From positions 1-15,002 of the forward strand of contig JAJNDL010000004.1 of assembly GCA_021156385.1 (NCBI GenBank): a stretch of 15,002 nt of DNA, written 5' to 3'. Source of the stretch: Moraxellaceae bacterium (GTDB taxonomy: Bacteria; Pseudomonadota; Gammaproteobacteria; Pseudomonadales; Moraxellaceae). The translations under genes and the position numbers were made by a program. A model generated the notes under the pieces. That model was not told where the DNA came from. It searched no databases and worked only from the letters and a program-made list of their open reading frames with translations. Position 1 is the first letter of the stretch; every line of letters starts with the position of its first letter. Below, piece after piece: positions 1 to 14,151 of the stretch.

Positions 1-408
1 CTAGACGATCCGATAAATCATCGACCCGCTTGCCACGCCCTTGCCATCGGCGTCGACAATGTCCACATCACAGAACACCAATTCCTTACCGCGCCGGCGG
101 ACGATGCCTGTCGCCAGGATGTCTTTCCCGATAGCTGCTGACAGATAATTAATCGTGAGGCTGACCGTTGCGGCCTTGACACCTCGCGACACATCATGGC
201 CAGACCAGGCGGCAAGCGCCCCCGTCAAGTCGAGCAAACTGCTCATGACACCACCGTGCAGGGCCTCGCCACCGCCCACCAACTCATGGCGGAAGGGGAT
301 CCTAACGGTGACTCGGTCCGGGACAAGGTCAACGATCTCGATACCTAACAGTTTCTGAAACGGAACACTTGGGTACGCCGCTACCAAAGCCTCCACAAAC
401 TCGCTCAT
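1..408 (-). CDS. PaaI-type hotdog thioesterase
   Basis: This is a complete 135-residue single-hotdog protein, the normal length for PaaI/YbdB-type acyl-CoA thioesterases, which hydrolyse acyl- or aryl-CoA in the cytosol. The family signature is visible: HGGVMSSLLD at residues 51-60, where the HGG helix start and Asp60 correspond to the catalytic region, followed by the beta-sheet stretch KAATVSLTINYLSAA (about 78-92) and a C-terminal ASGSMIYRI strand. The ATG at 406-408 is preceded by AAAGGAG about 6 bases upstream, so the start is well supported. It lies 97 bases downstream of the flavin monooxygenase gene, on the same strand, with its own ribosome site. It may share that transcript and recycle CoA from dead-end thioesters. 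The family call is firm; the substrate is unknown. Confidence 0.88.
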   Translation of the reverse strand: MSEFVEALVAAYPSVPFQKLLGIEIVDLVPDRVTVRIPFRHELVGGGEALHGGVMSSLLDLTGALAAWSGHDVSRGVKAATVSLTINYLSAAIGKDILATGIVRRRGKELVFCDVDIVDADGKGVASGSMIYRIV

Positions 409-2050: not shown

Positions 2051-2959
2051 TCAATGCACAGCTGCTTCCATCAGGGAAGAACGGTTCTTGAAGTATTTGT
2101 TCAGGAGGCCGTCGTCGCCGAACATGGCCTTCGCCCACTTTGCCTCAAGCGCCGTTGTATCGTGCTGCGCAGGATGGAAGCGCTTGGCCAGGAACAATGG
2201 CAACTTCGGCAGGACACCTGTGACAAAGCCCTGGCGGCCGAACAGGAGGTTCAAGCCCTTGCCGATGTCTTTGATATCGGTAGCCTTGCCCTCTCTCGCC
2301 ACCAGCCATGCCCAGCTCATGAACACGGCGGGCACCAGGGTCACGACCACGGCCGCGGCTGCCGCTGTGCGCTCGATACGCGAGTTGCCCACGAGCTCAT
2401 AAACATCATAGGCGACCGCCTTGTGCTCGAGCTCCTCGAACGCGTGCCACTGCCAGAGCTTGATCATCTCCGGGTCAGCCTTTTCAGCGAACTGCGGATT
2501 CTCAAGAAGCTCTTCAGCGAGCAGCGCGGTGAAGTGCTCCATGAATGTCGTGGCCGCGATCTGGGTGCTCTTCGGCAGGTGGTCCAGCACGCCCAATCCA
2601 AGCTTTACAGCGGCCACAGGAAAGCTCAGGTCAATGCCGCTCTGCTCGAGCAGTTCATTTAGTTTGTCATGCTCACGCCCATGGATCGCCTCCTGCCCCA
2701 TGAAGCCGGACACCTGATCCTTCAGACGTGCATCCTTGACGATGTCACGGAAATTTCTCACGGAATCCATAAAGAAGCGCTCGCCCGGCGGAAACCAGCT
2801 CGACAGCATGGCGAAGAACAGCGTAGCCGTGGCGTTGTCGTCGTAGAAATAACGTTTTGTGGCATCCATGCGGAAATCCATCTGGCGGGGCGGAATGCCG
2901 ACGCGGGCTCCGGCGGGCTGGTGATGCTTGGTATTCATCGTGGTGGTTTCTTCAATCAT
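2051..2959 (-). CDS. COG3687-type metal-dependent hydrolase (PF10118-like)
   Basis: A 302-residue protein of the 'predicted metal-dependent hydrolase' family, whose members often sit beside flavin monooxygenases and SDRs in bacterial ketone or steroid catabolic clusters. Likely metal ligands recur in helical motifs: E90-xx-H93-xxx-H97 in GQEAIHGREH, E141-H142 in MEHFTALLAEE, and H172-xx-E175-E176-xx-H179 in WHAFEELEHK. The pattern recalls ferritin-like dimetal proteins. An alanine/valine-rich hydrophobic stretch at about 198-222 may be membrane-associated. The ATG at 2957-2959 has AGGAG about 8 bases upstream; the internal Met8 is a weaker alternative. It is the first gene of the cluster with the monooxygenase and thioesterase. 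It might open the ester made by the monooxygenase, but no reaction is firmly established for the family. Confidence 0.85.
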   Translation of the reverse strand: MIEETTTMNTKHHQPAGARVGIPPRQMDFRMDATKRYFYDDNATATLFFAMLSSWFPPGERFFMDSVRNFRDIVKDARLKDQVSGFMGQEAIHGREHDKLNELLEQSGIDLSFPVAAVKLGLGVLDHLPKSTQIAATTFMEHFTALLAEELLENPQFAEKADPEMIKLWQWHAFEELEHKAVAYDVYELVGNSRIERTAAAAAVVVTLVPAVFMSWAWLVAREGKATDIKDIGKGLNLLFGRQGFVTGVLPKLPLFLAKRFHPAQHDTTALEAKWAKAMFGDDGLLNKYFKNRSSLMEAAVH

Positions 2960-3289: not shown

Positions 3290-3305
3290 TTGGTCGTATG
3301 ACCAA
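3290..3305. promoter_or_regulatory. Operator site 1, TTGGTC-GTAT-GACCAA
   Basis: A perfect 6-bp inverted repeat with a 4-bp spacer, matching the TTGGYC-N4-GRCCAA consensus shared with 8072-8087, 14095-14110 and 14131-14146. It lies 12 bases downstream of a GATAAT -10 box reading toward the hydrolase/monooxygenase cluster. That places it about +4 to +20 of the predicted transcript, a position where a bound dimer would repress. The length and symmetry fit a TetR-like dimer, but that assignment is inference. Confidence 0.72.
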
Positions 3306-3317
3306 ATGTAAGGCGAA

Positions 3318-3323
3318 ATTATC
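3318..3323 (-). promoter_or_regulatory. Putative -10 box (GATAAT) of the hydrolase/monooxygenase cluster
   Basis: On the minus strand GATAAT matches the sigma-70 -10 consensus at five of six positions. No good -35 hexamer is visible at 16-18 bases; the nearest TTG-like element (TTGGTT) is too close. The promoter may therefore be weak or activator-dependent. The spacing to operator 1 mirrors that at the other two operons, which supports the call. Confidence 0.45.
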
Positions 3324-3492
3324 AGCAGGCACGGTTAACCAACAGGTGCATGCGTGCCAAATGGCTATCATTTTGGGCCATGGTGGCTTTACGAGCGGCG
3401 CTACCGATTACGCCGGTTTCGGCAGAGGCGTTTGCTTCTGCTCTTGATTCCTCGAACTTGTGATGTCCGGATCAGGCCGCCTGTCTACTTAG

Positions 3493-3783
3493 CCGACTGT
3501 ACGGATTTCCGGAGCCAGCTCTCCCTGGGCGACACGCTACGAGCGCCTCGCCCATGTGAACTCCTTCGGCCATGCCCAACTGCGCGGAGTACTGCCGGCC
3601 AGGCTGCTGCAGACGCCGCTGCCGGTGGATGCGGTGGCAGCACACGTTGGCAACGAGGACACATCGAATTTCAGCCGCACCTTTCGGCGCTGGGTGGGCA
3701 TGACACCGAGCGAGTTCCGCGCGGGCACCACGCGCAGGGTGGAGTCGTGCGGCCCGGATGTCACGGCACGTTCGGGCTATTGA
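3493..3783 (+). pseudogene. C-terminal remnant of an AraC-family transcriptional regulator
   Basis: On the plus strand the open frame ending with TGA at 3781-3783 encodes the end of an AraC-type DNA-binding domain. It reads RYERLAHVNSFGHAQ, then RLLQTPLPVDAVAAHVGNED, then the hallmark second helix-turn-helix TSNFSRTFRRWVGMTPSEFR. An in-frame TAG lies upstream at 3490-3492, and no frame upstream gives the roughly 200-residue N-terminal domain or first helix expected of a 300-350-residue regulator. The residue before the NED stretch is Asn-context 'GNED' where functional relatives usually have GYED. A GTG at 3556 could in principle start a 75-residue peptide, but this is best read as a decayed gene. 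AraC regulators commonly neighbour monooxygenase/COG3687 hydrolase clusters, so it is probably the former local regulator. The only gene-like sequence found on the plus strand besides the IS relic. Confidence 0.65.
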
Positions 3784-3906
3784 AGAAAAAGACCGGAGGG
3801 ACGTGGGCACGCCGATTCGCCTCGTGGCCGAACTCACGACGTGAGTCTGCCACTGTCCACTGGCGTGCTCAGCGCCTGGCAAGATTCCCGACTGTCCGCC
3901 TTTACC

Positions 3907-3928
3907 GGGAGCTGCGAACTATGCTCCC
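3907..3928 (-). terminator. Possible hairpin directly after the acyl-CoA dehydrogenase stop
   Basis: GGGAGC-N10-GCTCCC forms a 6-bp GC-rich stem that begins at the base after the TGA (3929-3931). It would close the five-gene operon, but the loop is long and no T-run follows on the minus strand, so intrinsic termination is uncertain. Confidence 0.3.
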
Positions 3929-5080
3929 TCAGAGCGAACGGGCGATGATCTCCTTCATGATTTCGCTGGTCCCGCCATAAATGCGCTGCACGCGCGCATC
4001 GGCGTAGAGCTGGGTAATCGGATACTCCAGCATATAGCCGTAGCCACCGAAGAACTGCACGCACTCGTCGATGACCTTGCACTCCAGCTCGCTCAGCCAG
4101 AGCTTGGCGATGGACGCCGTCGCGGTGTCCATGGAGCCGTTGATCAGGCGCTCGACACAGTTGTCGGTAAAGGTACGCGCCACCACCGCCTGCGCCTTCA
4201 CCTCGGCCAGCTTGAAGCGGGTGTTCTGCATGTCGAACACGGAGCGTCCGAACGCCTTGCGGTCCTTGGTGTACTGCACCGTGAGGTCCAGCGCGCGCTC
4301 GATGCGCCCGATAGAGATATTGGCCAGGATGGTCCGCTCGTAGGGCAGCTCCTGCATGAGCTGATAGAAACCCTGCCCCTCGACACCGCCCAGCAGGTTC
4401 GCCGCCGGCACGCGCACCTCGTCGAAGAAAAGTTCGCAGGTGTCCTGCCCTTTCTGCCCGAGCTTCTCCAGGATGCGGCCGACCTTGAAACCCGGCGCGT
4501 TCTTCGTCTCCAGCAGGAGCAATGACACGCCCTTGGCGCCGGCGCCGGTATCCGTCTTGGCGACAACCACGATGAGGTCGGCCAGGAAGCCATTGGAAAT
4601 GAAGATCTTCGAGCCATTGATGACGTAGTCATCGCCATCGCGCACGGCCGTGGTCCGCACCCCCTGGAGATCGGAGCCGGCATTGGGTTCCGACATGGCA
4701 ATCGCTCCCACCATCTCGCCGGACGCAAGCTGCGGCAGGTATTTACGTTTTTGCCCCTCAGTGCCCTGGTTGAGGATGTAGTGCGCGGCAATGGCATGGA
4801 CATGCACCCCGAAGGAAGAGTCGCCGGCATAGGCAAGCTCCTCGAACAGCACGGCCATATGCCCGTAGTGACCTGCGCTGCCACCGTACTCCTCGGGCAC
4901 GTCGGCCAGCAGCACACCGAGCGCACCCGCCTCCCGCCACAGCTCGCGGTCCACATGCTGTTGCGCGCGCCACTTATCTTCGTGGGCCGCCACTTTCGCC
5001 TGCACGAAGCGGCGCACCATGTCGCGATAGGTGCGAAGGTCGGCGTCCATCCAGGCCGGTTGAGGCGAAGTTGTCATCAT
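3929..5080 (-). CDS. Acyl-CoA dehydrogenase (long-chain/isovaleryl-CoA dehydrogenase class)
   Basis: A 383-residue FAD-dependent acyl-CoA dehydrogenase, the usual length, catalysing the first (2,3-dehydrogenation) step of beta-oxidation in the cytosol. Visible motifs are the FAD-binding AIAMSEPNAGSDLQG (126-140), KIFISNG, the RKAFGRSVFDMQ helix and the C-terminal FFGGYGYMLEYPITQLYADA and RIYGGTSEIMKEIIAR. The C-terminal motif has IYGGT rather than the IYEGT of short/medium-chain enzymes. The catalytic base is therefore expected at Glu248 in ELPYERT, as in the LCAD and IVD classes. The ATG at 5078-5080 has GGGAGA about 7 bases upstream; the longer frame to 5113 would overlap the SDR stop and lacks such a site. 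It is the last gene of the five-gene operon, 16 bases after the SDR. The substrate is unknown, but the LCAD/IVD-type active site suits long or branched acyl chains. Confidence 0.92.
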   Translation of the reverse strand: MMTTSPQPAWMDADLRTYRDMVRRFVQAKVAAHEDKWRAQQHVDRELWREAGALGVLLADVPEEYGGSAGHYGHMAVLFEELAYAGDSSFGVHVHAIAAHYILNQGTEGQKRKYLPQLASGEMVGAIAMSEPNAGSDLQGVRTTAVRDGDDYVINGSKIFISNGFLADLIVVVAKTDTGAGAKGVSLLLLETKNAPGFKVGRILEKLGQKGQDTCELFFDEVRVPAANLLGGVEGQGFYQLMQELPYERTILANISIGRIERALDLTVQYTKDRKAFGRSVFDMQNTRFKLAEVKAQAVVARTFTDNCVERLINGSMDTATASIAKLWLSELECKVIDECVQFFGGYGYMLEYPITQLYADARVQRIYGGTSEIMKEIIARSL

Positions 5081-5096
5081 GGGTTCTCCCGAAAGA

Positions 5097-5927
5097 TCAA
5101 AGGGCCAGGCCACCGCCGCACACTACGGTCTGGCCACTGATGTAGTTGGATTCAGGCGTACAAAGCAGGTAAACGGCATCGGCCGCCTCCTCCGGCGTGC
5201 CGGCACGCCCCAGCGGAATGCCGGACTCGAAGGTCCTGGCCAGGTCGGGACTGATGCCGACCTTGATGTCGCGACCCTCGATGCGGATGGTGGCATCGCC
5301 ACCGGCCACCGCTTCTGTCAGACGGGTCCGGATCATGCCGAAGGCCACGCAGTTCACGTTGACCTTGTAGCGGCCCCACTCCTTGGCGAGCGTCATGGTC
5401 ATGCCGAGCATGCCGGCCTTGGCGGCGGCGTAGTTCACCTGGCCGGCATTGCCGCCGAGGCCGGCAATCGAAGAGATGTTCACCACCTTGCGGAACACCT
5501 CGCGTCCCTGCTCCTGCTCGGCCTTGCTCAGATTGCGGAGCACCGGCTGCGCGGCGCGCAGGATGCGGAACGGCGCCGTAAGGTGCACGTCCATCATGGC
5601 GTACCACTGTTCGTCGGACATCTTCTGGATCACGCTGTCCCAGGTATAGCCGGCATTGTTGACGATGATGTCCAGTCCCTGGAAAGACTGCAGGGCGGTC
5701 TTGATGAAGCGGTCCGCGAAATCCGGCGCGGTCACACTGCCGACGCAGGCCACCGCTTCACCGCCGCGCTCCCGGATCAGGGCGACCACCTCCTCGGCCG
5801 GGCTCGCCTCCAGGTCATTGACAACCAGACGGGCACCCTCGCTGGCGAGCTTGAGTGCAATGCAGCGGCCGATACCGCGGCCGGAACCGGTGACGAGGGC
5901 GACTTTGCCGGCGAGCTTTTGCGTCAT
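5097..5927 (-). CDS. SDR-family 3-hydroxyacyl-CoA dehydrogenase (FabG/MFE-2-like)
   Basis: A 276-residue classical short-chain dehydrogenase. The nucleotide motif is TGSGRGIG (13-20), the structural NNAG is at 90-93, and the catalytic Ser153 and Y166-xxx-K170 have the normal 13- and 4-residue spacing in ISSIAGLGGNAGQVNYAAAK. The usual active-site Asn of FabG is His115 in the DVHLTAPFR motif; a similar VHL is common in MFE-2/HSD17B4-like SDR domains. Asp38 after the second strand favours NAD over NADP. The ATG at 5925-5927 has GGAAG about 8 bases upstream. It lies 66 bases after the MaoC subunit gene and 16 before the acyl-CoA dehydrogenase. In this operon the natural role is oxidation of 3-hydroxyacyl-CoA to 3-ketoacyl-CoA. 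The exact substrate is inferred from context. Confidence 0.9.
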   Translation of the reverse strand: MTQKLAGKVALVTGSGRGIGRCIALKLASEGARLVVNDLEASPAEEVVALIRERGGEAVACVGSVTAPDFADRFIKTALQSFQGLDIIVNNAGYTWDSVIQKMSDEQWYAMMDVHLTAPFRILRAAQPVLRNLSKAEQEQGREVFRKVVNISSIAGLGGNAGQVNYAAAKAGMLGMTMTLAKEWGRYKVNVNCVAFGMIRTRLTEAVAGGDATIRIEGRDIKVGISPDLARTFESGIPLGRAGTPEEAADAVYLLCTPESNYISGQTVVCGGGLAL

Positions 5928-5993
5928 GTCGTTGCTTCCATAAGTGAAGGGAAAACGTTGAGGCGGGTGATACAGTTCGCAGGCAGCGCCGCT

Positions 5994-6404
5994 TCACACG
6001 GCAATGACCGCTTCGCCCAGCATTTTCACCTCGCCGTACTGATTGGCGGACTGAATCGCCACGCGCACGCGACTTTCACCGTCACCCTCCATTTTCTCGA
6101 CGATGTGACCCGTACAGGTGACAGCATTCTGCAGATGCGTGATGCCCACAAAGCGCGCCTCGAACGAACGTAGCTGCTGCTGGGGCACCCAGTTCGTAAG
6201 CAGGCGGCCCAACCAGGCCATCGACAGCATGCCGTGGGCGAAAACGTCCGGCATGCCGGCGCCACGGGCAAAATCGAGATCGATATGGATGGGGTTGTGA
6301 TCGCCCGAGGCGCCGGCGAACAGCGCCAGCGTGCCGCGGCCAATCGCCGGCAGCTGTAGTGGCGGCAGGGGCTGCCCCACAGCCATCTCATCGAATGACA
6401 TCAT
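5994..6404 (-). CDS. MaoC-like hydratase subunit with catalytic Asp/His
   Basis: A 136-residue single-hotdog protein of the MaoC / (R)-specific enoyl-CoA hydratase family. The hydratase-2 signature is complete: FAGASGDHNPIHIDLDFA, with Asp35 and His40 as the catalytic pair, followed by the overhanging segment DVFAHGMLSMAWLGRLL. Enzymes of this type add water to trans-2-enoyl-CoA to give (R)-3-hydroxyacyl-CoA. The ATG at 6402-6404 has GAGGGG 8 bases upstream; a second ATG follows directly. It starts 12 bases after the partner MaoC-N gene. The pair looks like a split double-hotdog hydratase in which this subunit carries catalysis, comparable to HadB of HadAB or one ChsH subunit. The family is firm and heterodimer formation is inferred. 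Confidence 0.9.
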   Translation of the reverse strand: MMSFDEMAVGQPLPPLQLPAIGRGTLALFAGASGDHNPIHIDLDFARGAGMPDVFAHGMLSMAWLGRLLTNWVPQQQLRSFEARFVGITHLQNAVTCTGHIVEKMEGDGESRVRVAIQSANQYGEVKMLGEAVIAV

Positions 6405-6416
6405 TCCGGAAACCCC

Positions 6417-6860
6417 TCAGCCATTGCGCTGGACGATCACGAAGGCAAGGTCGGTGACATGCTCGCCCGCCTGGTTGCTGACTCGGGTGTCCCGGGTAAC
6501 AAATTCCAGGGCACCATTTTTCTTGTCGCAGATGTCGGTAATTCGGCTCGCGAATGTGAGCACATCGCCGGCGCAGGCCGGCCGGTGATACACAAACCGC
6601 TGCTCGCCGTGCAGGATGCGCGCGAGATCCATGCCAAGCAGTTCGAGCCAGTCAAGCGGATCCGGCCTCTCGAGCTCCAGCGCGAACAGGAAGGTCGGCG
6701 GCACCGGCAACGAGCGGTAGCCCGCGCGCCTGGCGGCGGCCTCGTTGCTATAGACCGGCGAGGTTTCGCCGATGGCTTTGGCAAAGAAACGCAGCCGTCC
6801 GGCCTCGACCAGAACGGAATGGCCCGGCAATGTGCGCCCGATCTGGGATCTGTCCAGCAT
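6417..6860 (-). CDS. MaoC N-terminal-type (FAS1-like) dehydratase partner subunit
   Basis: A 147-residue hotdog protein resembling the N-terminal MaoC-like dehydratase domain (PF13452). Visible family stretches are FFAKAIGETSPVYSNEAAAR (25-44), the PVPPTFLFAL turn (52-61) and the central ILHGEQRFVYHRPACAGDVL (82-100). It lacks the D-x-N-P-x-H catalytic dyad, as expected for the non-catalytic half that shapes the acyl-binding pocket in heterodimers. The ATG at 6858-6860 lies 6 bases after the thiolase stop, with AGAAGG about 12 bases upstream overlapping the end of the thiolase gene, so translation is probably coupled. Together with the next gene it should form one enoyl-CoA hydratase. A role for it alone is unlikely. 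Confidence 0.87.
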   Translation of the reverse strand: MLDRSQIGRTLPGHSVLVEAGRLRFFAKAIGETSPVYSNEAAARRAGYRSLPVPPTFLFALELERPDPLDWLELLGMDLARILHGEQRFVYHRPACAGDVLTFASRITDICDKKNGALEFVTRDTRVSNQAGEHVTDLAFVIVQRNG

Positions 6861-6866
6861 GGGGCG

Positions 6867-8051
6867 CTAGGCCTTCTGGTAGAGGGTGACGACACAGGCG
6901 CCGCCCAGCCCGAGATTGTGCTGCAGGGCGTTGCGCGCTCCAGTAACTTGGCGCGCCTCAGCCTTGCCGCGCAGCTGGTGCGTCAGCTCATAGCACTGGG
7001 CAAGGCCGGTGGCACCCAAGGGGTGTCCCTTGGACAGCAGGCCGCCGGAGGGATTTGTCACTACCTTGCCGCCATAGGTGTTGGCGCCGGCTTCCACGAA
7101 TCGCTCCGCCTCGCCAACCGGGCAGAAGCCCAGGGCCTCGTAGGTGATGAGCTCGTTATGTGCGAAGCAGTCGTGAAGCTCACAGACGTCGATGTCCTCC
7201 GGACCGACGCCAGAGCGCGCGTATACATGGCGCGCCGCTTCCTGGGCCATGCCGAAACCGACCAGGTTGATCATGTCGTGCGCAGCAAAAGTGCCCGGGA
7301 GGTCGGTGGTCATGGCCTGAGCGGCAATGAAGACATCGCGGCGCAGGCCATGTCGCCGCGCAAACGCATCGGAGACGAGCAGCGCGGCAGCCGACCCGCA
7401 GGTCGGCGGGCAGGCCATGGAGCGGGTCATGACTCCCGGCCACAGCAGTCTCTCGCTCATCACCTCTTCGGGCGTGACCACCTGCCGGAACAGCGCCAGC
7501 GGATTGTTGACCGCATGACGGCTGGCCTTAGCGCGGATCTTCGCAAAGGTTTCCATCTTCGTGCCGTACTTGCGCATGTGGCTCTGGCCGGCGCCCCCGA
7601 AATAGCGCAGCGCCAGCGGCAGCTCGACATCTACCAAGGCATCCGTGACGGCGTCGAAATCCTCGAAGGGGCTGGGGCGGTCGGTAAAAACGCTGCCGAT
7701 GGCTCCCGCGTTCATCTGCTCGAAGCCGACCGCTAGCACACAGTCCGCCACGCCACTCGCCACCGCCTGCCGCGCCAGGTAGAGCGCCGTGGAGCCGGTA
7801 GAGCAGTTGTTGTTGACGTTGATGACGGGAATGCCCGTCATGCCCAGCGGGTACAGGGCCTTCTGCCCGCAGGTGGAGTCACCGTAGACATAGCCGGCAT
7901 AGGCCTGCTCGACCTGGCCGTAGCTGAGGCCGGCATCGTCCAGCGCCAGCCGGGCCGCCTCGGCGCCCATCTCGTGGTAGGGCCTGTTCTGGCCAGGCTT
8001 CACGAACGGAATCATGCCAACGCCGGCGACAAAAACTCTTGGCTGACTCAT
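6867..8051 (-). CDS. SCP-x-type thiolase (3-ketoacyl-CoA thiolase without SCP2 domain)
   Basis: A 394-residue thiolase closely resembling the thiolase half of eukaryotic SCPx. It has the nucleophile Cys83 in VNNNCSTGSTALYLARQ, HDCFAHNELITYEALGFCP (293-311), GGLLSKGHPLGATGLAQC with His343, and LQHNLGLGGACVVTLY at the end. There is no SCP2 sterol-carrier domain. SCPx-type enzymes cleave 3-ketoacyl-CoAs including 2-methyl-branched and sterol side-chain substrates; some bacterial relatives (Ltp2) act as aldolases with a DUF35 partner, and no DUF35 gene is seen here. The ATG at 8049-8051 has CAGGAG 8 bases upstream; the frame is open to 8273, but that extension covers the promoter and operator, so it is excluded. 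First gene of the five-gene operon. Confidence 0.93.
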   Translation of the reverse strand: MSQPRVFVAGVGMIPFVKPGQNRPYHEMGAEAARLALDDAGLSYGQVEQAYAGYVYGDSTCGQKALYPLGMTGIPVINVNNNCSTGSTALYLARQAVASGVADCVLAVGFEQMNAGAIGSVFTDRPSPFEDFDAVTDALVDVELPLALRYFGGAGQSHMRKYGTKMETFAKIRAKASRHAVNNPLALFRQVVTPEEVMSERLLWPGVMTRSMACPPTCGSAAALLVSDAFARRHGLRRDVFIAAQAMTTDLPGTFAAHDMINLVGFGMAQEAARHVYARSGVGPEDIDVCELHDCFAHNELITYEALGFCPVGEAERFVEAGANTYGGKVVTNPSGGLLSKGHPLGATGLAQCYELTHQLRGKAEARQVTGARNALQHNLGLGGACVVTLYQKA

Positions 8052-8070
8052 GGGGCGCTCCTGCGAGTGA

Positions 8071-8088
8071 CTTGGCCAAATGACCAAG
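8071..8088. promoter_or_regulatory. Operator site 2, TTGGCC-AAAT-GACCAA
   Basis: The core at 8072-8087 fits TTGGYC-N4-GRCCAA with one asymmetric base, and flanking C/G pairs extend the arms to seven. It lies 7-8 bases downstream of the -10 box of the thiolase operon promoter and 20 bases upstream of the thiolase ATG. A bound repressor would cover the predicted transcription start. A degenerate second match (TTGGTC-GCCT-GCCCGA, 8102-8117) falls in the promoter spacer. Confidence 0.75.
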
Positions 8089-8095
8089 CGTCGCA

Positions 8096-8125
8096 ATGCT
8101 ATTGGTCGCCTGCCCGAGGTGTCAA
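8096..8125 (-). promoter_or_regulatory. Sigma-70-like promoter of the beta-oxidation operon
   Basis: On the minus strand a perfect -35 TTGACA (8120-8125) is followed by an 18-base spacer and a -10 TAGCAT (8096-8101, four of six consensus). Transcription would start near 8088-8090, giving a short leader of about 40 bases with the CAGGAG ribosome site. Operator 2 overlaps the predicted start. Confidence 0.65.
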
Positions 8126-8280
8126 GCATGCTGCCCGCATGCCCTGCCCATGATGGACCGTCGGATTCTCCCCGTACGATGATTGGCCGCACAGGCTTTC
8201 CTGGCAGACAGCTTCTATTGCACTTTCTGAGTTCGGACTCGGACGGCTCGGCAATGGTCAATGGCTTCGCCAAAGCTTAA

Positions 8281-8442
8281 GAGCGTGTTTCTAAATTAGA
8301 GCCCATCTCAAAAATAGTTAGGTTCTAAGCGTCGGCCTACACTGATGCCCTGCTGATCTAGGGCGTAGGTGTGCGATGGAAATTACCGCACGGCAATGCT
8401 CTATTCTCGAGCCGCTGTTGCACGCCAAAGGGCGCTGGCAGC
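8281..8442 (+). mobile_element. Truncated IS5-like insertion sequence remnant
   Basis: This AT-richer stretch between two operons begins near GAGCCCATCTCAAAAATAG (8300-8318), which looks like an insertion-sequence end preceded by TTA. It then carries the start of a transposase frame at 8376: MEITARQCSILEPLLHAKGR, resembling the N-terminus of IS5-family (IS427-group) transposases. The similarity stops after about 20 codons, near 8440, just short of the 3' end of the exported-protein gene. No right end or remaining transposase is present. Outer limits are approximate. Confidence 0.45.
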
Positions 8443-8445
8443 TCT

Positions 8446-10530
8446 TCAGCGCTGCTTCATCAGCGAAAACGAGCTGTACCACTGGCCGGAGGGAACCACC
8501 ACGCTGGCCAGACTATCCGCGCCGAGCTTGACAGCGTTAGCAAGAAAAGGCGCGCCTCCACTTACCGTGCTTCCCAGCACGATGTCGGACCCGATCATGA
8601 GCTGGGCGGTTCTCGGTGTGGTTTCAGCTTCTGACAGCACATCGACACGGCCATTCTGCAAGGCCAGATCGCCGGTAATCTGCGCCAGGCGAATGTTCAC
8701 ATCCGAACGACCGGGCTCGGCGATCGAAATATAACTCCCGTCCGCATCGGGAGAGGAAAAATTGCTGACATTCAGGTCGGTAAATCTGAGCCGGGCACCG
8801 AAGCCCATATAGGAGGACCCGGAGGGAGAAGGGGATAGCGTCACCTCGAAATTATCGAACTCAAGATTGGCGTCCACATCCAGCAGCTTCACCTCGTCAG
8901 CGGCGGCGAGATCGCCCGATTTGATTTCCCCACCGCCCAGGCGCCCGTTAAAGCCGACGCGCACCTGGCCTGACTTGAGGTTGATCCCTTCCGGCTTCAA
9001 AGCCAGGAACAGGTCATTGAAGGCAAATAAAATATTGGACCGCAAGAAGCCGATGCCGAGCGTTGTGGTGCCCGCCCCCTTGGCGGCGGCAGTGTCGGCA
9101 ATCATGAAGTGGCTGCCGCTGTTCCAGGCGCTGCTGTTGGAGGCGATCTTGACGAGACCGTCAAGCTTCATCCCCACCGTATTGGCCACCCCGGTCCCCG
9201 GGTAAATGAAGACATTGGCATCCACATCGCCCAGCGTGTAAATCAACGCCCAGGAAAAGGTCTGATCCTCCGGGGTACCAAGTGCCGACGTATCCAGATA
9301 ATCACCGTCCTTGTTGATGTCGTCCTGAATCTTGACATTGGTGGAATAGGCATGCAGGTTGCCGTCGCGCACCAGCAACGCGAACCCATCCTCGGCGGCG
9401 ACATTGAGATACTGTCCACCATTCGGGCACCCGGGACCGTTACTGGCGCCGCGCCAGCATAATCCGCCGGGCTCTTGCCCGGCCTTGACGACATCCAGGG
9501 TGATGTTGGGAAAGTTCAGGGCATAGGGCGCGCCCGCCAGCTTCTGCCAATTACTGAACACCAGGCGGGCATTCGCGCCAGGCTCCTGCGTAACCCAGGC
9601 AAAGCCGGGGTCAAAGTCCCAGCGCAGGCTCATGTTGATGCCCTCACTGCGGTTGGCTATATTTTCCACGCCCCCGCCATCGGTACCGTACCAGACACCG
9701 CCCCCGCGGACGGCCACCTGCAGATTGGTCAGCTTCCCCAGCCAGTTCCACTGCAGTACCGGCAGGTCGCCCGCTTTGTAGGTAAATGCATCCGCGGCTG
9801 CCGGCGCACCTTCGTAACGCAGACTGAAACCCGCATCCAGATTGGCTGTCGCCGCCTCCATGAAGAGGCCCTTGTCGGTGGCCACACCTACCTTTCCGCC
9901 GGTGAAGTCCAGCTTGAGGCGCAACGCATCGAACAGGGCTTCTGGCTGCCCGGCCGCGCCCTGGCGATAGAACAGCTTGGCATCGCCCAAGTCCAAGGAG
10001 AATGCCGCGGCGGCATCCGCGCTGTTGAGCAGACCCTTGCTATTGCTCAGGCTGAAGGCCACGGCGCTGTCCAGGGCGAAGCTGCCCAGAGAGCGGCTGG
10101 CGTCCACCTGGTGAACCACCTTGTCCACCAACAGGCGGGTTCGGGACCCCTGTAACGTCACCGCCATTCCCGGCACTGTCCCATCGCCTCCGGCATCGAC
10201 AGTGGCGCTATAGGTGAAGTTGCCTGCAGTAGTTCCGCCATTCAGCGCGATAGGCTTCAAGGAAACATTTTCCACCTGCGCCCAGGCCTCCGGGTTGATG
10301 GTCACCCCCCCGACGGCGGATACGCCGCGGTCTACTGTCCAGCGCGAGGCGCTAAGAGGGATGGTGGAATGGCTCAATGTCAGGGTGAGCCCATCGCTGC
10401 CGTGCACACTGGCGAGGCTGTCATCCTCCATCGGCTCCAGCGCCCCCGCCAAGGGGGTGAGAAAAAGCAAGCCGAACCCACAGATTACCCAGGGGTGTAG
10501 CGACCTGCCGCGTTGAACCGTTGTCATCAT
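8446..10530 (-). CDS. Large exported DUF6160/Fil-like protein (694 aa)
   Basis: A 694-residue exported protein, last and largest of the four-gene operon. Residues 1-30 form a signal peptide (hydrophobic WVICGFGLLFLTPLAGA), directly followed by the shared acidic motif MEDDSLASVHGSDG (34-47). The rest alternates short beta-like strands rich in Gly, Asn, Asp and Ser. It includes a calcium-loop-like DINKDGDYLD at about 398-410 and repeats of the type 'LKLDFTGGKVGV' and 'INLKSGQVRVGFNGRLGGG', and ends in VVVPSGQWYSSFSL. It starts 6 bases after the upstream stop, with GAGG overlapping that stop; the second ATG (10527) is equally possible. The family is, from memory, DUF6160-like and related to the putative 'Fil' pilus-system proteins of Acinetobacter. 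The function is unknown; a surface or periplasmic location is inferred. Confidence 0.82.
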   Translation of the reverse strand: MMTTVQRGRSLHPWVICGFGLLFLTPLAGALEPMEDDSLASVHGSDGLTLTLSHSTIPLSASRWTVDRGVSAVGGVTINPEAWAQVENVSLKPIALNGGTTAGNFTYSATVDAGGDGTVPGMAVTLQGSRTRLLVDKVVHQVDASRSLGSFALDSAVAFSLSNSKGLLNSADAAAAFSLDLGDAKLFYRQGAAGQPEALFDALRLKLDFTGGKVGVATDKGLFMEAATANLDAGFSLRYEGAPAAADAFTYKAGDLPVLQWNWLGKLTNLQVAVRGGGVWYGTDGGGVENIANRSEGINMSLRWDFDPGFAWVTQEPGANARLVFSNWQKLAGAPYALNFPNITLDVVKAGQEPGGLCWRGASNGPGCPNGGQYLNVAAEDGFALLVRDGNLHAYSTNVKIQDDINKDGDYLDTSALGTPEDQTFSWALIYTLGDVDANVFIYPGTGVANTVGMKLDGLVKIASNSSAWNSGSHFMIADTAAAKGAGTTTLGIGFLRSNILFAFNDLFLALKPEGINLKSGQVRVGFNGRLGGGEIKSGDLAAADEVKLLDVDANLEFDNFEVTLSPSPSGSSYMGFGARLRFTDLNVSNFSSPDADGSYISIAEPGRSDVNIRLAQITGDLALQNGRVDVLSEAETTPRTAQLMIGSDIVLGSTVSGGAPFLANAVKLGADSLASVVVPSGQWYSSFSLMKQR

Positions 10531-10536
10531 GACACC

Positions 10537-11757
10537 TCAGCAAAACTTGCTGGAGCCGTAGCAATTCGAGACAGGGGACTGGTTCATATCCAGGTTATCG
10601 ACATTCACCCCCTCCTGCATCTCGCCCAACAGTGCCACGGAGCCCAGCACACCATAATCGTTCGTTGTATTCAGGTTTCTGACTGCCGCATAGGGGATAT
10701 TCATCCACCAGCCGGTGTTGGCCGTGGCCGCATAACCGGACTTGTCGAATTTTGGATAGGCAATTTGTTCGCGCTGGAACGACAGAAAGAAATCCTTGGT
10801 TTTCGTGCTATCGAGGATGATCGTGTGGACAAACCGCAAGGCTTCTTTCAGGTCCACATGCACGCTGTCATCCGGCGACAACAACCCGGAATAAATCATG
10901 GCCGGGAAATCATCGGGATGATGACTCTGCTTGGACACGACCAGCAGCTTGTCCATGCGGGTACCGCTGCGCCTGACGAAGAAGGGGTCGCGGAAGCTGG
11001 CATCGGCGCCGGTATTGTTGCCGGGATTGCCATCGCAGTTGGCATGCAGCGCCGCGCCGCCGCTGCCCATGCCCGTGGTATCGCCAAAGCAGGCATTGGC
11101 GGTACCCAGTGATGTCTGCGCGGCCAGCTTTCCAGACAGTTCCACATTCAGATAGCCGCTCATGTAGTTGATTCCGGACTCGCAGGCCAGCGCGCCAGCC
11201 CCGGTATTGGCGCCCGTATCGCAGGTGCCCCCGCGTTCCACGTTGACCTGGCCGTTGGCATACTCGCGCCCAATGCTTAACGCGCCGTCCGCGCTTTCAA
11301 AGCCAATCTTTATGCCGACGATCTCCCGGTTGGTCTTGTTGCCATCCTCCTTGACAGCGAGCTCGATATAAGGACGCCGCACCATGAAATCACTGGTCAC
11401 CGCCGCGCCGGGAGCATTGCCGTTGCGCCCCATGAAGCGCACATAATCCATGTCGATGTCGCAGGCATTGGCCACCAGATTCTCGTTGCTGCCACCGCAT
11501 CCCAGCTGCAGCTTGTCGATATTGAGATTGAAGGCCATGTCCACGTCCAGGCCGAGGCGGTAATAGGTGAAGTCTGTGGAGCTGCCGACCCCTCCCGCTC
11601 CCGTCAGCGAGTTGGGGCCAATCCTGTCGCTGACAAACAGGGCCTGCCCATTCACCTGCTCCAGCTCGGCATCATCCATTTCCTGAACGGCAACAGCCGG
11701 TCCCGCCTGCAGCAGGATAAGCAATAGCAGCTGCGTCGCTCTTGATTTTCTATCCAT
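10537..11757 (-). CDS. Exported DUF6160/Fil-like protein (406 aa)
   Basis: A 406-residue exported protein, third in the operon. A signal peptide covers residues 1-23 (LLLLILLQAGPAVA), followed at once by the shared motif MDDAELEQVNGQA (27-39). The mature part has the family stretches FNLNIDKLQLGCGGSNEN, ANACDIDMDYVRFMG, MVRRPYIELAVKEDGNKTNR and REIVGIKIGFESADGALSIG. This order is typical of this uncharacterised gammaproteobacterial family. Several Cys (LGCGG, NACDI, CDTG, ACES, NACFGD, the C-terminal NCYGSSKFC) suggest disulphides in an oxidising compartment. The ATG at 11755-11757 has an AGGGAGAGGG ribosome site and lies 14 bases after the preceding stop. It resembles proteins annotated as pilus-assembly or Fil proteins; no function is established. 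Confidence 0.82.
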   Translation of the reverse strand: MDRKSRATQLLLLILLQAGPAVAVQEMDDAELEQVNGQALFVSDRIGPNSLTGAGGVGSSTDFTYYRLGLDVDMAFNLNIDKLQLGCGGSNENLVANACDIDMDYVRFMGRNGNAPGAAVTSDFMVRRPYIELAVKEDGNKTNREIVGIKIGFESADGALSIGREYANGQVNVERGGTCDTGANTGAGALACESGINYMSGYLNVELSGKLAAQTSLGTANACFGDTTGMGSGGAALHANCDGNPGNNTGADASFRDPFFVRRSGTRMDKLLVVSKQSHHPDDFPAMIYSGLLSPDDSVHVDLKEALRFVHTIILDSTKTKDFFLSFQREQIAYPKFDKSGYAATANTGWWMNIPYAAVRNLNTTNDYGVLGSVALLGEMQEGVNVDNLDMNQSPVSNCYGSSKFC

Positions 11758-11771
11758 GTGCCCTCTCCCTG

Positions 11772-12443
11772 CTAAAAGCCATACAGCCTGACCTTTCCAT
11801 CCACATCAATCGTGGTGGTGTAGCCGGCGGTGTCCCTGATCCGGAAGCCGAGAAAGCTCCCGTTGGCGTCGTTGCCAAAGCCTGTGGCACCGTATTCCAG
11901 CGCCATTCGCCCTACCTCCAGCCCCAGGGTGATGTCGTTCTCGAAGACGCCCGGACTGCCGGTGAAAGACAGCTGCAGCGCCGGCAGGTTTCTCGGATCG
12001 CAACCGGCCAGCAAGCACGTGCCCGCATCATTCTTAAAACGGGCATCGTCCCGGTAGGCGGTGTAGGCAGCGGGATTGAAGGAACCGTCCACATTCAGCC
12101 CATCGATGAAGAGCCGGCCAAAAAAATCCTTGAGCATGAGCCACTCGCCACCGCCCCCCGCACGATTGGCGAACTTGACTCCCAGCTTGCAGGGATTGTT
12201 GAGGCCCACGCAGCTGGATAACGATGCCAGTGGCGCGCCACTGGCATCGGCATTCATGCGATGCTCCAGCAACAGTGCGACCCCCTGCTGACCTGCCACG
12301 CCCGCCATCTCGTCATCGAGCAACTCTTCCATGCCTGCACAGGCAGTACCGGAAAGCCCCGCCATCAGCGTGACAAGGGCGAACGCCCCGTAAGCACGAG
12401 ACAAGGGCCGTGCGCGACCTCGCGTACAATTGCTGGCGCTCAT
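11772..12443 (-). CDS. Exported DUF6160/Fil-like protein (223 aa)
   Basis: The smallest of the four, 223 residues. A twin-Arg-free signal peptide spans about 1-36 (GAFALVTLMAGLSGTACA), followed by the shared motif LLDDEMAGVAGQQG (41-54). The mature part contains LKDFFGRLFIDGLNVDGSF and two Cys-containing loops (SSCVGLNNPCKLG, GTCLLAGCDPRNLP). The LNVDG phrase and a C-terminal TTIDVDGKVRLYGF strand fit a repetitive beta fold. The start codon overlaps the upstream stop in ATGA at 12440-12443, with GGGAG 8 bases upstream, so translation is coupled. Codons for DASGAPLAS (about residues 66-74) lie inside a perfect 28-bp DNA palindrome, listed separately. The specific role is unknown. Confidence 0.8.
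   Translation of the reverse strand: MSASNCTRGRARPLSRAYGAFALVTLMAGLSGTACAGMEELLDDEMAGVAGQQGVALLLEHRMNADASGAPLASLSSCVGLNNPCKLGVKFANRAGGGGEWLMLKDFFGRLFIDGLNVDGSFNPAAYTAYRDDARFKNDAGTCLLAGCDPRNLPALQLSFTGSPGVFENDITLGLEVGRMALEYGATGFGNDANGSFLGFRIRDTAGYTTTIDVDGKVRLYGF
12222..12249. repeat. Perfect 28-bp palindrome inside a coding region
   Basis: The half CGATGCCAGTGGCG (12222-12235) is followed with no spacer by its exact reverse complement (12236-12249), centred on an AscI-type GGCGCGCC. The symmetry breaks at 12221/12250. It lies within the 223-residue exported-protein gene and encodes DASGAPLAS. A 14-bp perfect dyad is not expected by chance in 15 kb. It could form a cruciform or a mRNA hairpin, or bind a dimeric protein; its role is unknown. 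Confidence 0.9.
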
Positions 12444-13972
12444 GGACCGGCTCCCAGCGTGGTGATTTTCAAATGCTGGATCAGCATTCCCTCGATTCGG
12501 CTATCGCCCAGGTTCACCGAGGACAGCCCGGTACGGCTGGCGGTGATCACAGGCACGGGGGGATCATTATCCAAAGGAGCATCGGCATTGGGCCGGCTCG
12601 CTGTCGCCGTGAACGTTCCAGCGGCGGTCGCCTTGCTGAAAATGATGCCGTCGGAGGTAGAGCTGAAGGCATTGCAGAGAGAGCCCGCCGCTCCGCAGTT
12701 GGGGCCGTTGCCCGGATACCAGTCTCCCCAGCGCGCATACCCATGGGTCTCGCGATAGCGGTCCGGTCGCCCGTTACGCTGGTAGCCGCAATTGGCGCCA
12801 CTGTAACGAGGGTCCTCGCATCCCAAGGCGGAGGTGGAAATGCTGTAAAAATCGTTGTAGGCATTTGCCTGGTTGGGCAGCCGCGTAAGCGCTATGACAA
12901 AGTTGCCGTTGCCCGCCGTGGCACCGCTTTGGGTGTCGTCCAGAATGAGTGATTGGTAGAACAGCTGCCCTAACGGGAAATACGCATTCACATTGCGGAA
13001 CTTGAGACCGGGTGCATCGTCGGCTGATGTGCCATTGGCGAACAGAGGCACGCTTCCCAGTGCGCCGGCACTGCCGCTGGCCTGGGCCAGGCTAAAGCGG
13101 AAGTCTCCCGATAACCGGCTATACCAGTTCAGGGCCAGGGTGCGGTCATTGTTGTCCTGGTTCTGGAATACCCTGAATACGGTGCCCGCCGACATGTTGG
13201 CGGCGGAATACGTCTCCGTGGTCGTGGTTCTGTCGCTTCGGGTACACAAAAATCCACAGCTCACTGAAACCACTACATTTTTAGTGGTAGTCGTGGGCGT
13301 GTATTGATAGGTGGTCCCGACCGGGTCGCTGACGTTCTGCGTCGTGGTGGTGGACGTGCTGCTGGTGATCGCGGTATGGGGCGCCACCGGCTTGCCAACG
13401 ATCATGACCTGGCTTTGCAGCAGGCCGCTATTGGTGCCCCCTGACTTGCCCACCTCCGCCTCCCCCCAGAAAGCCCAGCGGTAGGGATCTGAATTGGTCG
13501 GCCCCAGGACCTCCAGCACCACCTTGGTGATGCTGTTGTTCTGAAAGTCATACGCTGTCTTGTCGAACACGCGCAGCAGATAGGGATTGTCAAAGGGCGC
13601 CATCAGAAAGCCGGTATTCGCCACAGGGCAGAAGGCATGGCCACATGCCTCACCCGTCCAGCCCCGACCATCGACGGCGCCGGCTCCCGACAGGGTAAGG
13701 CCATACCATCGCAGATCCCCGCGCTTGAAGACCGACCCAGTCGCGGGGACCGTGCCGATCTGCTCGAAATAGCCGGTGTTTTTCATCTGGAAGCGGAAGT
13801 CTTCCGCCACAATGGCGACACCTTCGCCGGTGACATCTGCCAGCTCCGCATCGTCCATTGCCGTCGGGGCATAACAGAGCCCCAGAGAATTAGGCATGGA
13901 AAGTGCGAGCAACACGCCGCCCATCCAAACTCGGCGATGCCATCCTGGCATGAGAAAGTTTTTGTTATTCAT
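12440..13972 (-). CDS. Exported DUF6160/Fil-like protein (510 aa), first gene of operon
   Basis: A 510-residue exported protein, first of four. The N-terminus MNNKNFLMPGWHRRVWMGGVLLALSMPNSLGLCYA is a signal peptide, followed by MDDAELADVTGEG (39-51), the clearest copy of the motif shared by all four. The mature part includes GDLRWYGLTLSGAGAVDG, LMAPFDNPYLLRVFDKTAYD and VVLEVLGPTNSDPYRWAFWG, then a Thr/Ser-rich low-complexity stretch at about 199-260 interrupted by CGFLC. Farther on are LNWYSRLSGDFRFSLAQASG and Cys pairs (CEDPRYSGANCGY). I chose the ATG at 13970-13972; the frame also allows a TTG at 13978, which is better spaced from GGGG. The gene ends in an ATGA overlap with the next. The promoter at 14122-14151 carries two operators. 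The function is unknown, with a surface location inferred. Confidence 0.82.
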   Translation of the reverse strand: MNNKNFLMPGWHRRVWMGGVLLALSMPNSLGLCYAPTAMDDAELADVTGEGVAIVAEDFRFQMKNTGYFEQIGTVPATGSVFKRGDLRWYGLTLSGAGAVDGRGWTGEACGHAFCPVANTGFLMAPFDNPYLLRVFDKTAYDFQNNSITKVVLEVLGPTNSDPYRWAFWGEAEVGKSGGTNSGLLQSQVMIVGKPVAPHTAITSSTSTTTTQNVSDPVGTTYQYTPTTTTKNVVVSVSCGFLCTRSDRTTTTETYSAANMSAGTVFRVFQNQDNNDRTLALNWYSRLSGDFRFSLAQASGSAGALGSVPLFANGTSADDAPGLKFRNVNAYFPLGQLFYQSLILDDTQSGATAGNGNFVIALTRLPNQANAYNDFYSISTSALGCEDPRYSGANCGYQRNGRPDRYRETHGYARWGDWYPGNGPNCGAAGSLCNAFSSTSDGIIFSKATAAGTFTATASRPNADAPLDNDPPVPVITASRTGLSSVNLGDSRIEGMLIQHLKITTLGAGP

Positions 13973-14094
13973 TACCAAGTCAACCCCGAAGGGTCCCCAG
14001 TTTTTTATGAGGCAAAACCCGCCGCAGGCTCACACAGGGAACGTAGAAGCCTTCCGCTGCGCAGCAATCAGGTTCGCGCACTTTCGTCCGATGA

Positions 14095-14110
14095 TTGGTC
14101 GACCGGCCAA
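14095..14110. promoter_or_regulatory. Operator site 3, TTGGTC-GACC-GGCCAA
   Basis: This matches TTGGYC-N4-GRCCAA and lies 11 bases downstream of the -10 box of the exported-protein operon, at about +4 to +20. Its centre is 36 bp from operator 4. The same position relative to the -10 is seen at operators 1 and 2. Confidence 0.75.
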
Positions 14111-14121
14111 ATTGGCAGTGG

Positions 14122-14151
14122 AGAATAATTTTGGCCAAACGGCCAAGTCAA
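14122..14151 (-). promoter_or_regulatory. Sigma-70-like promoter of the exported-protein operon
   Basis: On the minus strand -35 TTGACT (14146-14151, five of six) is followed by an 18-base spacer and -10 TATTCT (14122-14127, four of six). The spacer is filled by operator 4, and operator 3 lies just past the predicted start. A leader of about 140 bases precedes the first ATG. Confidence 0.65.
14131..14146. promoter_or_regulatory. Operator site 4, TTGGCC-AAAC-GGCCAA
   Basis: A perfect 6-bp inverted repeat with a 4-bp spacer that sits between the -35 and -10 hexamers of the exported-protein operon. A protein bound here would block RNA polymerase directly. With operator 3 it gives this promoter two sites, so it is probably the most tightly controlled of the three. 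Confidence 0.78.

What the first reader, a model, noticed from the sequence alone, without database searches (positions are those of the whole stretch)
3290..14146. Undescribed 16-bp operator TTGGYC-N4-GRCCAA unites three operons in one regulon
Four copies occur (3290-3305, 8072-8087, 14095-14110, 14131-14146) and I saw no other full match. By hand estimate a full match is expected about 0.004 times in 15 kb. All four sit at promoters of the monooxygenase cluster, the beta-oxidation operon and the exported-protein operon, with a similar position 8-12 bp past a -10 box. The symmetry fits a TetR-like repressor, probably ligand-released. The motif does not match the KstR, KstR2, PsrA or FadR consensus I know. 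The regulator gene is not in the window.
Basis: partly seen in the sequence, partly recalled or inferred. Interest (0 to 1): 0.88.

Follow-up and report, generated by a model that had tools for sequence, protein, structure and literature searches.

The report
Operator of a lipid-oxidation TetR repressor
Four copies of a short mirror-image DNA sequence in this bacterial window are most likely the docking sites of a so far unnamed repressor protein, whose gene lies on another contig of the same genome, and which appears to control fat- and hydrocarbon-oxidising genes together in related bacteria.

Summary
The four TTGGYC-N4-GRCCAA copies are real, the only exact ones in the 2.26-Mb assembly, and far above chance (0.0075 expected). 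A fitting regulator was found on another contig: TetR1 (G000:C47:4249-4866). In the closest relative (TetR1 90% identical) the motif precedes the TetR1 operon. In 45 non-redundant loci chosen by TetR1 alone, the commonest palindrome is TTGGTT-N4-AACCAA; TTGGYYN4RRCCAA occurs 73 times in 37 loci, its reversed control once. The window's copies score as TetR1 sites, not as those of a second TetR with a look-alike palindrome. Three operators lie in or just past the only two minus-strand promoter-like sites. The site before the PF10118-monooxygenase-thioesterase operon recurs in relatives; those before the thiolase and exported-protein operons were not found at the homologues examined. CYP153 genes near TetR1 carry no site directly upstream (0 of 22). 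No open-library paper holds the motif strings searched. Binding, repression and ligand (perhaps an acyl-CoA) are inferred. New member of a known kind: a TetR regulon of lipid/hydrocarbon oxidation.

The parts
3290..3305 (.). Operator 1 TTGGTCGTATGACCAA, upstream of the PF10118 - flavin monooxygenase - thioesterase operon (about 330 or 351 bp from the two possible ATG starts, 2959 and 2938)
   Evidence: exact match; TetR1 PWM 23.3 against TetR2 PWM 10.6; sites also upstream of this operon's PF10118 gene in L071 and L123
8072..8087 (.). Operator 2 TTGGCCAAATGACCAA, 8 bp past the -10 of the thiolase operon promoter, 20 bp before ATG 8051
   Evidence: PWM 22.4 against 7.7; no exact TTGGYCN4GRCCAA near the 13 thiolase hits examined in relatives
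8102..8117 (.). possible degenerate second site (2 mismatches, TTGGTCGCCTGCCCGA) in the spacer of the same promoter, 30 bp from operator 2
   Evidence: matches with up to 2 mismatches are expected 2.6 times in the window by chance, so tentative
8096..8125 (-). sigma-70-like promoter TTGACA-18-TAGCAT of the thiolase operon
   Evidence: 3 such sites found in the window, 4.2 expected from shuffles; a consensus match only
14095..14110 (.). Operator 3 TTGGTCGACCGGCCAA, 11 bp past the -10 of the exported-protein operon
   Evidence: PWM 22.7 against 11.3
14131..14146 (.). Operator 4 TTGGCCAAACGGCCAA, inside the -35/-10 spacer of the exported-protein operon, 36 bp from operator 3
   Evidence: PWM 24.2 against 7.6; tandem pairs 26-36 bp apart recur in relatives
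14122..14151 (-). sigma-70-like promoter TTGACT-18-TATTCT of the exported-protein operon
   Evidence: consensus match only
2051..2959 (-). PF10118 'predicted metal-dependent hydrolase', first gene of operon 1
   Evidence: E 1e-79
506..2035 (-). flavin-binding monooxygenase with partial similarity to solved Baeyer-Villiger monooxygenases, operon 1
1..408 (-). hotdog thioesterase, operon 1
6867..8053 (-). thiolase of the lipid-transfer type, first gene of operon 2 (ATG first base at 8051)
   Evidence: (NF006102, above its cut-off)
3929..6860 (-). rest of operon 2: FAS1-dehydratase-like (6417-6860), MaoC dehydratase (5994-6404), short-chain dehydrogenase (5097-5927), acyl-CoA dehydrogenase (3929-5113)
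   Evidence: homologues of the first gene

Best explanation
The four palindromes are operators of TetR1 (P0001, G000:C47:4249-4866, minus strand), a TetR-family regulator whose nearest structures are acyl-CoA-type regulators. A TetR1 dimer binds TTGGYC-N4-GRCCAA; at the thiolase and exported-protein promoters the sites lie in the -35/-10 spacer or just past the -10, where bound protein would block RNA polymerase. A ligand made or used by the pathway (most likely an acyl-CoA) would release it, so that TetR1's own operon (alpha/beta hydrolase, PF10118 protein, TetR1, BtrH-like protein, two thioesterases), the PF10118-monooxygenase-thioesterase operon, the thiolase/beta-oxidation operon and the exported-protein operon rise together. 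Shown: the sites, their uniqueness in the assembly, the enrichment of this palindrome class at TetR1 genes, the promoter overlap. Inferred: binding, repression, ligand, and that the own TetR1 operon has a site (its promoter is off the contig).
Against: TetR1's own contig in G000 (6,053 bases) holds no exact site; it ends inside the hydrolase gene, so the promoter is not seen. 8 of 45 TetR1 loci have no site. No exact site assignable to the promoters of 13 thiolase hits (closest 80% identical) or of the exported-protein homologues. Counted genome-wide, the loose pattern is not a marker of TetR1: in the 11 TetR1-bearing genomes of a 145-genome sample of the order 89 sites against 66 control. The exact YC form is enriched only in genomes with Arg-type TetR1 (49 against 10), not with Lys-type (6 against 5). 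The Arg/Lys change is one event on the tree, so that association is not independent evidence. 9 of 42 exact sites looked at in nine Arg-type genomes lie inside long ORFs (my count). The PWM training sets hold near-copies (L048/L049, L050/L051). Operator 1 is 330 bp or more from its first gene.
Confidence: 0.82

Rival explanations
1. The sites belong to a second TetR (TetR2), which in relatives heads operons that look like MFP-RND pump operons and has a look-alike palindrome just before its own start.
For: Exact TTGGYCN4GRCCAA sites 15-18 bp before TetR2 in L057, L074, L075 and similar palindromes (0-2 mismatches to TTGGYYN4RRCCAA) at TetR2 in 8 more loci, L246-L248 and L250-L254; the core is nearly the same.
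Against: TetR2 sites share ATTGG/CCAAT flanks (all 10 used) that the window sites do not share on both sides; PWM scores 7.6-11.3 against 22.4-24.2 for TetR1; TetR2 was not found in the own assembly at E 1e-15, which is only 59% complete.
Confidence: 0.07
2. TetR1 regulates only the monooxygenase operon here, and the thiolase and exported-protein sites are look-alikes without function.
For: No exact site at homologues of these two operons in the relatives examined.
Against: Three further exact sites in one 15-kb contig with 0.0075 expected; all three lie in or just past the two minus-strand promoter-like sites; the nearest thiolase relative, in G007 (91%), is cut off by its contig end before the promoter, so the best comparison could not be made.
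Confidence: 0.15
3. The palindromes are a structural or mobile element (terminator stem, repeat or uptake sequence), not operators.
For: 14131-14146 scores as a terminator-like stem (11 such sites found, 12.5 expected).
Against: Only four copies in 2.26 Mb, all in one contig; variable N4 core; positions at promoters; enrichment at one regulator gene in other genomes.
Confidence: 0.02

Closest known systems
FadR (Bacillus), KstR2, PfmR, AibR: TetR regulators of lipid or acyl-CoA metabolism
   Different: 19-28% identity; NCBIfam FadR scores 60 bits against a cut-off of 200; their operators, as I recall them, differ (recall, not looked up)
AlkX (Dietzia) and AlkU (Rhodococcus), TetR repressors of alkane hydroxylase genes
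   Same: TetR repressors of alkane-oxidation genes
   Different: reported from Actinobacteria, next to alkB-type genes; conserved repeats at Rhodococcus alkB are GATTTacAAATC and ACAAATcTtcAtATTTGT (PMC8784404 and PMC6921075, passages only)
AlmR and APR1, regulators of the long-chain alkane monooxygenase gene almA
   Same: control a flavin monooxygenase gene in hydrocarbon degraders
   Different: APR1 is AraC/XylS; AlmR is said to have a predicted Ig-like domain and is tabled with family 'None' (PMC11784139 and PMC8784404, passages only); not compared by sequence here
LaoR (P. aeruginosa LaoABCR)
   Same: transcriptional regulator beside a long-chain alcohol oxidation cluster (PMC7318663, passages only)
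   Different: neither the LaoR sequence nor its gene order was compared with TetR1
CypR, AraC activator of CYP153
   Same: CYP153 genes often lie near TetR1, and AraC-type genes lie beside some of them
   Different: AraC family; CYP153 genes in the loci held carry no TetR1-type site within 600 bp upstream, 0 of 22

Membership tests
TetR/AcrR transcription factor family (TetR1) | TetR_N helix-turn-helix domain | tested here: met
   orthologue L048:4056-4712 PF00440 E 2.9e-10 and PF17932 E 1.9e-28; PF00440 and PF17932 precomputed for P0001 itself
TetR/AcrR transcription factor family (TetR1) | palindromic operator at its own promoter | tested here: inconclusive
   22 of 45 non-redundant loci have a site within 500 bp upstream of the gene, others at the start of a longer operon or none; in the own genome the promoter is off the contig; binding not tested
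FadR (NF053878) | score above the curated cut-off (200 bits) | tested here: not met
   60.1 bits
KstR2 | orthology and KstR2 operator | tested here: inconclusive
AlkX/AlkU-type alkane repressors | adjacent alkB/rubredoxin operon | not tested
   no alkB search was made
AlmR | sequence similarity to AlmR | not tested
   AlmR sequence not fetched; described with a predicted Ig-like domain
LaoR | sequence similarity to LaoR | not tested
   LaoR sequence not fetched
Ligand-released repressor | repression relieved by a ligand | not testable with these tools
   needs EMSA or reporter assays

The most novel reading that the evidence does not exclude
TetR1 is an unrecognised repressor, probably acyl-CoA-responsive, of PF10118/flavin-monooxygenase/thioesterase lipid- or hydrocarbon-oxidation modules in Moraxellaceae, Alcanivorax and Marinobacter, carried on conjugative Acinetobacter plasmids, with a one-residue (Arg35/Lys35) switch that sets whether its operator is TTGGYC or TTGGTT; in this lineage it has captured a beta-oxidation and an exported-protein operon.
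Probability: 0.45. Interest if true: 0.62.

Novelty: new member of a known kind. Interest (0 to 1): 0.5.

Why it matters
In the review passages read, the named CYP153 regulators are AraC activators, the named TetR alkane repressor is actinobacterial, and the almA repressor has no family. A TetR regulator with a defined operator beside hydrocarbon-oxidation modules of Alcanivorax, Marinobacter, Alkanindiges and Acinetobacter plasmids would give a directly testable regulon, put PF10118 proteins and the BtrH-like protein into one pathway, and offer a sensor part. The Arg35/Lys35 association gives a one-residue prediction of operator specificity.

Tried and rejected
CYP153 as a direct target: rejected for the loci held, 0 of 22 genes with a site within 600 bp upstream; CYP153 was not found in the own assembly either (an empty answer in a 59% complete genome shows nothing). 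Genome-wide counts of the loose pattern as a marker of TetR1: not informative. TetR2 as regulator: considered because of its look-alike sites, disfavoured by PWM and by its absence from the assembly. Promoters of thiolase and exported-protein homologues: looked at in the 1.5-kb flanks of 13, 30 and 29 loci, no exact site that could be assigned to a promoter. TetR paralogues of about 30% identity as negative control (14 loci, L092-L102 and L104-L106, 2.7-3.6 kb each): 0 of 14 has an exact TTGGYYN4RRCCAA site. Independence of the Arg/Lys-operator association: tested, one change on the tree only. Paper searches on regulator names listed no paper on this TetR that I recognised from titles, abstracts or the passages read; papers outside the open library were not searched, and the first short-term motif search (567 papers, 20 listed) was replaced, which found 0.
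Full report
Observation. The four 16-bp palindromes are present as described and no fifth exact match exists in the window. They are the only four in the 2,256,748-base assembly, control 0; one-mismatch matches elsewhere (7) are fewer than the control's (14). The background in 22 genomes of the same family without TetR1 is 29 sites in 58.1 Mb, so 0.0075 are expected in the window, P(>=4) 1.3e-10.

Promoter anatomy. The promoter scan finds three sigma-70-like sites in the window (4.2 expected from shuffles, so by itself no evidence); the only two on the minus strand coincide with operators. At the thiolase operon the order is TTGACA-18-TAGCAT, 8 bp, operator 8087-8072, 20 bp, ATG 8051; a degenerate site (two mismatches) lies in the spacer. 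At the exported-protein operon operator 14131-14146 lies in the spacer of TTGACT-18-TATTCT and operator 14095-14110 follows the -10 by 11 bp. Operator 3290-3305 follows GATAAT by 12 bp (read by eye) and lies about 330 or 351 bp before the two possible starts of the PF10118 gene.

Finding the regulator. A search of 58 relatives showed tandem copies and clusters of the motif. Reading some of those loci put a TetR gene beside them: in L048 (G012) the pair 3798/3831 lies between a GMC oxidoreductase and the TetR gene. The same TetR is encoded in the own assembly at G000:C47:4249-4866 (57% identical to the L048 protein; P0001), in the order end of an alpha/beta hydrolase gene, PF10118 protein, TetR1, BtrH-like protein, two thioesterases. 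That contig holds no exact site but ends inside the hydrolase gene. In G007, whose TetR1 is 90% identical, TTGGTCAAACGGCCAA stands 77 bp before the hydrolase gene of the same operon.

Test with loci not chosen by the motif. A genome-contig scan with the TetR1 alignment kept 79 loci (best 80 of 138 candidates) in Acinetobacter, Alkanindiges, Agitococcus, Alcanivorax, Alloalcanivorax, Marinobacter, Limnobacter and others. Some are the same contigs as in the discovery set (for instance L122 is the G007 contig and L142 a G012 contig). In 45 non-redundant loci, of all palindromes with 6-bp arms and gaps 0-12 the one found in most loci is TTGGTT-N4-AACCAA (19), a form that no earlier query contained; the next (TGGTTC, gap 5) has 13. 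TTGGYYN4RRCCAA: 73 sites in 37 of 45 loci, reversed control 1. 33 of the 73 lie in the 1 kb before TetR1, 31 within 500 bp, in 22 loci; 8 loci have none.

Which TetR. A second TetR (TetR2) heads operons that by my reading (not scanned) encode MFP-RND pumps, and has a look-alike palindrome at its start (PF00440). PWMs from 25 TetR1 sites (with some near-copies) and 10 TetR2 sites classify all 35 correctly on leave-one-out, and the four window sites, not used in training, score 22.4-24.2 for TetR1 and 7.6-11.3 for TetR2. TetR2 was not found in the assembly. Among columns 12-69 of TetR1, residue 35 explains most of the variation at operator position 6 (Arg: 37 C, 3 T; Lys: 79 T, 23 C). The tree needs only one Arg/Lys change, so this is not independent evidence; but inside the window's own genus G002, G004 and G007 have Arg-type TetR1 and YC sites while G003 and G006 have Lys-type TetR1 and TT-containing sites beside it. 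Residue 35 is at the start of helix 2 of the model; by my recall Arg28 of the Tet repressor, at the equivalent place, contacts an operator guanine.

Targets. In 64 non-redundant loci (of 116; part of these were fetched because they hold the motif, so the fractions are biased upward) there are 91 sites and 2 control sites. A site lies within 600 bp upstream of TetR1 in 23 of 46 genes, ferredoxin-reductase-like 5 of 5, PF10118 genes 3 of 8 and 6 of 14 for two query types, FMO 3 of 6, GMC 2 of 22, alpha/beta hydrolase 2 of 8; CYP153 P450 0 of 22, its reductase 0 of 21, AurF-like 0 of 5, acyl-CoA dehydrogenase 0 of 5, thiolase 0 of 2, BtrH-like 0 of 14, window-type thioesterase 0 of 4 (some of these are internal genes of operons). 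The site before the window's operon 1 is matched in G007 (L071:7176; the two loci align at 84.6% over the operon) and in L123 (9352 and 9560, PF10118 gene 78% identical), where the operon is divergent from TetR1 itself. In nine genomes with Arg-type TetR1 (G002, G004, G007, G011, G012, G017, G027, G031, G033) I looked at 42 of 45 exact sites: 32 intergenic (one of them, in L065, re-read by me although the script put it in an overlapping ORF; another, in L057, is at TetR2), 9 inside long ORFs, 1 ambiguous (my count).

Family counts. Exact motif against reversed control: 15 family genomes with TetR1 at E 2.4e-65 or better (own included) 55 and 15; the 22 others 29 and 23; Fisher p 0.01; Arg-type 49 and 10, Lys-type 6 and 5. 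In 145 genomes of the order the loose pattern does not mark TetR1: the 11 bearers have 89 sites and 66 control sites.

What did not fit. Homologues of the thiolase (13 hits, closest 80%) and of the first exported protein (30 loci, 29) have no exact site in the fetched flanks that could be assigned to their promoter; one exact loose match lies about 1.4 kb from a thiolase hit in L209. The nearest thiolase relative (91%, G007) is cut by its contig end before the promoter. The two operons may therefore be lineage-specific members.

Prior knowledge. TTGGTCAATTGACCAA and six further motif strings (N-pattern and Marinobacter forms) are in 0 papers of the open library. Review passages name AraC CypR for CYP153, TetR AlkX in Dietzia and AlmR of no family for almA; the passages read on the CYP153 of an Acinetobacter plasmid do not mention this TetR. 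TetR1 homologues lie on 48 plasmid records, 45 of Acinetobacter, 23 of the 48 predicted conjugative.

Verdict.

Noticed in passing
window 3520-3783 (+): An open stretch encodes the C-terminal helix-turn-helix part of an AraC-family regulator (HTH_18 E 2e-11; 36-46% identical over 39-49 residues to ORFs in TetR1 loci, two of which were confirmed as AraC family); no N-terminal part was seen in frame, perhaps a remnant between operons 1 and 2.
   Followed up: partly
L057:7437-8120, L074:8768-9463, L075:8673-9368: A second TetR (TetR2) with its own palindrome ATTGGKC-N4-GMCCAAT 15-18 bp upstream heads what look like MFP-RND pump operons; similar pump-like operons in L055, L056 and L062 carry the exact motif without a TetR2 gene seen beside it.
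   Followed up: partly
L185, L186, L188, L189, L190, L194, L195, L197: In Marinobacter and relatives two operators overlap by 12 bp (TTGGTTGGTYRACCAACCAA) about 180 bp before the matched start of TetR1.
   Followed up: no
L123 and L131: Contigs of MAGs labelled Verrucomicrobiaceae and Planctomycetaceae carry Moraxellaceae- or Acinetobacter-like TetR1 loci; probably misbinned contigs or mobile DNA.
   Followed up: no
window 2051-2959 (-): The PF10118 protein holds EAIH and EELEH motifs, which by eye look like a ferritin-like di-iron site rather than a hydrolase; no solved relative was found by sequence.
   Followed up: partly
window 8446-13972 (-): Relatives of the first exported protein occur in several copies in some Alcanivorax genomes and most listed ones bear no Pfam domain or name; weak DUF6160 and FilA matches.
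   Followed up: partly
Acinetobacter plasmids: TetR1 homologues occur on 48 plasmid records, 45 of them Acinetobacter.
   Followed up: no
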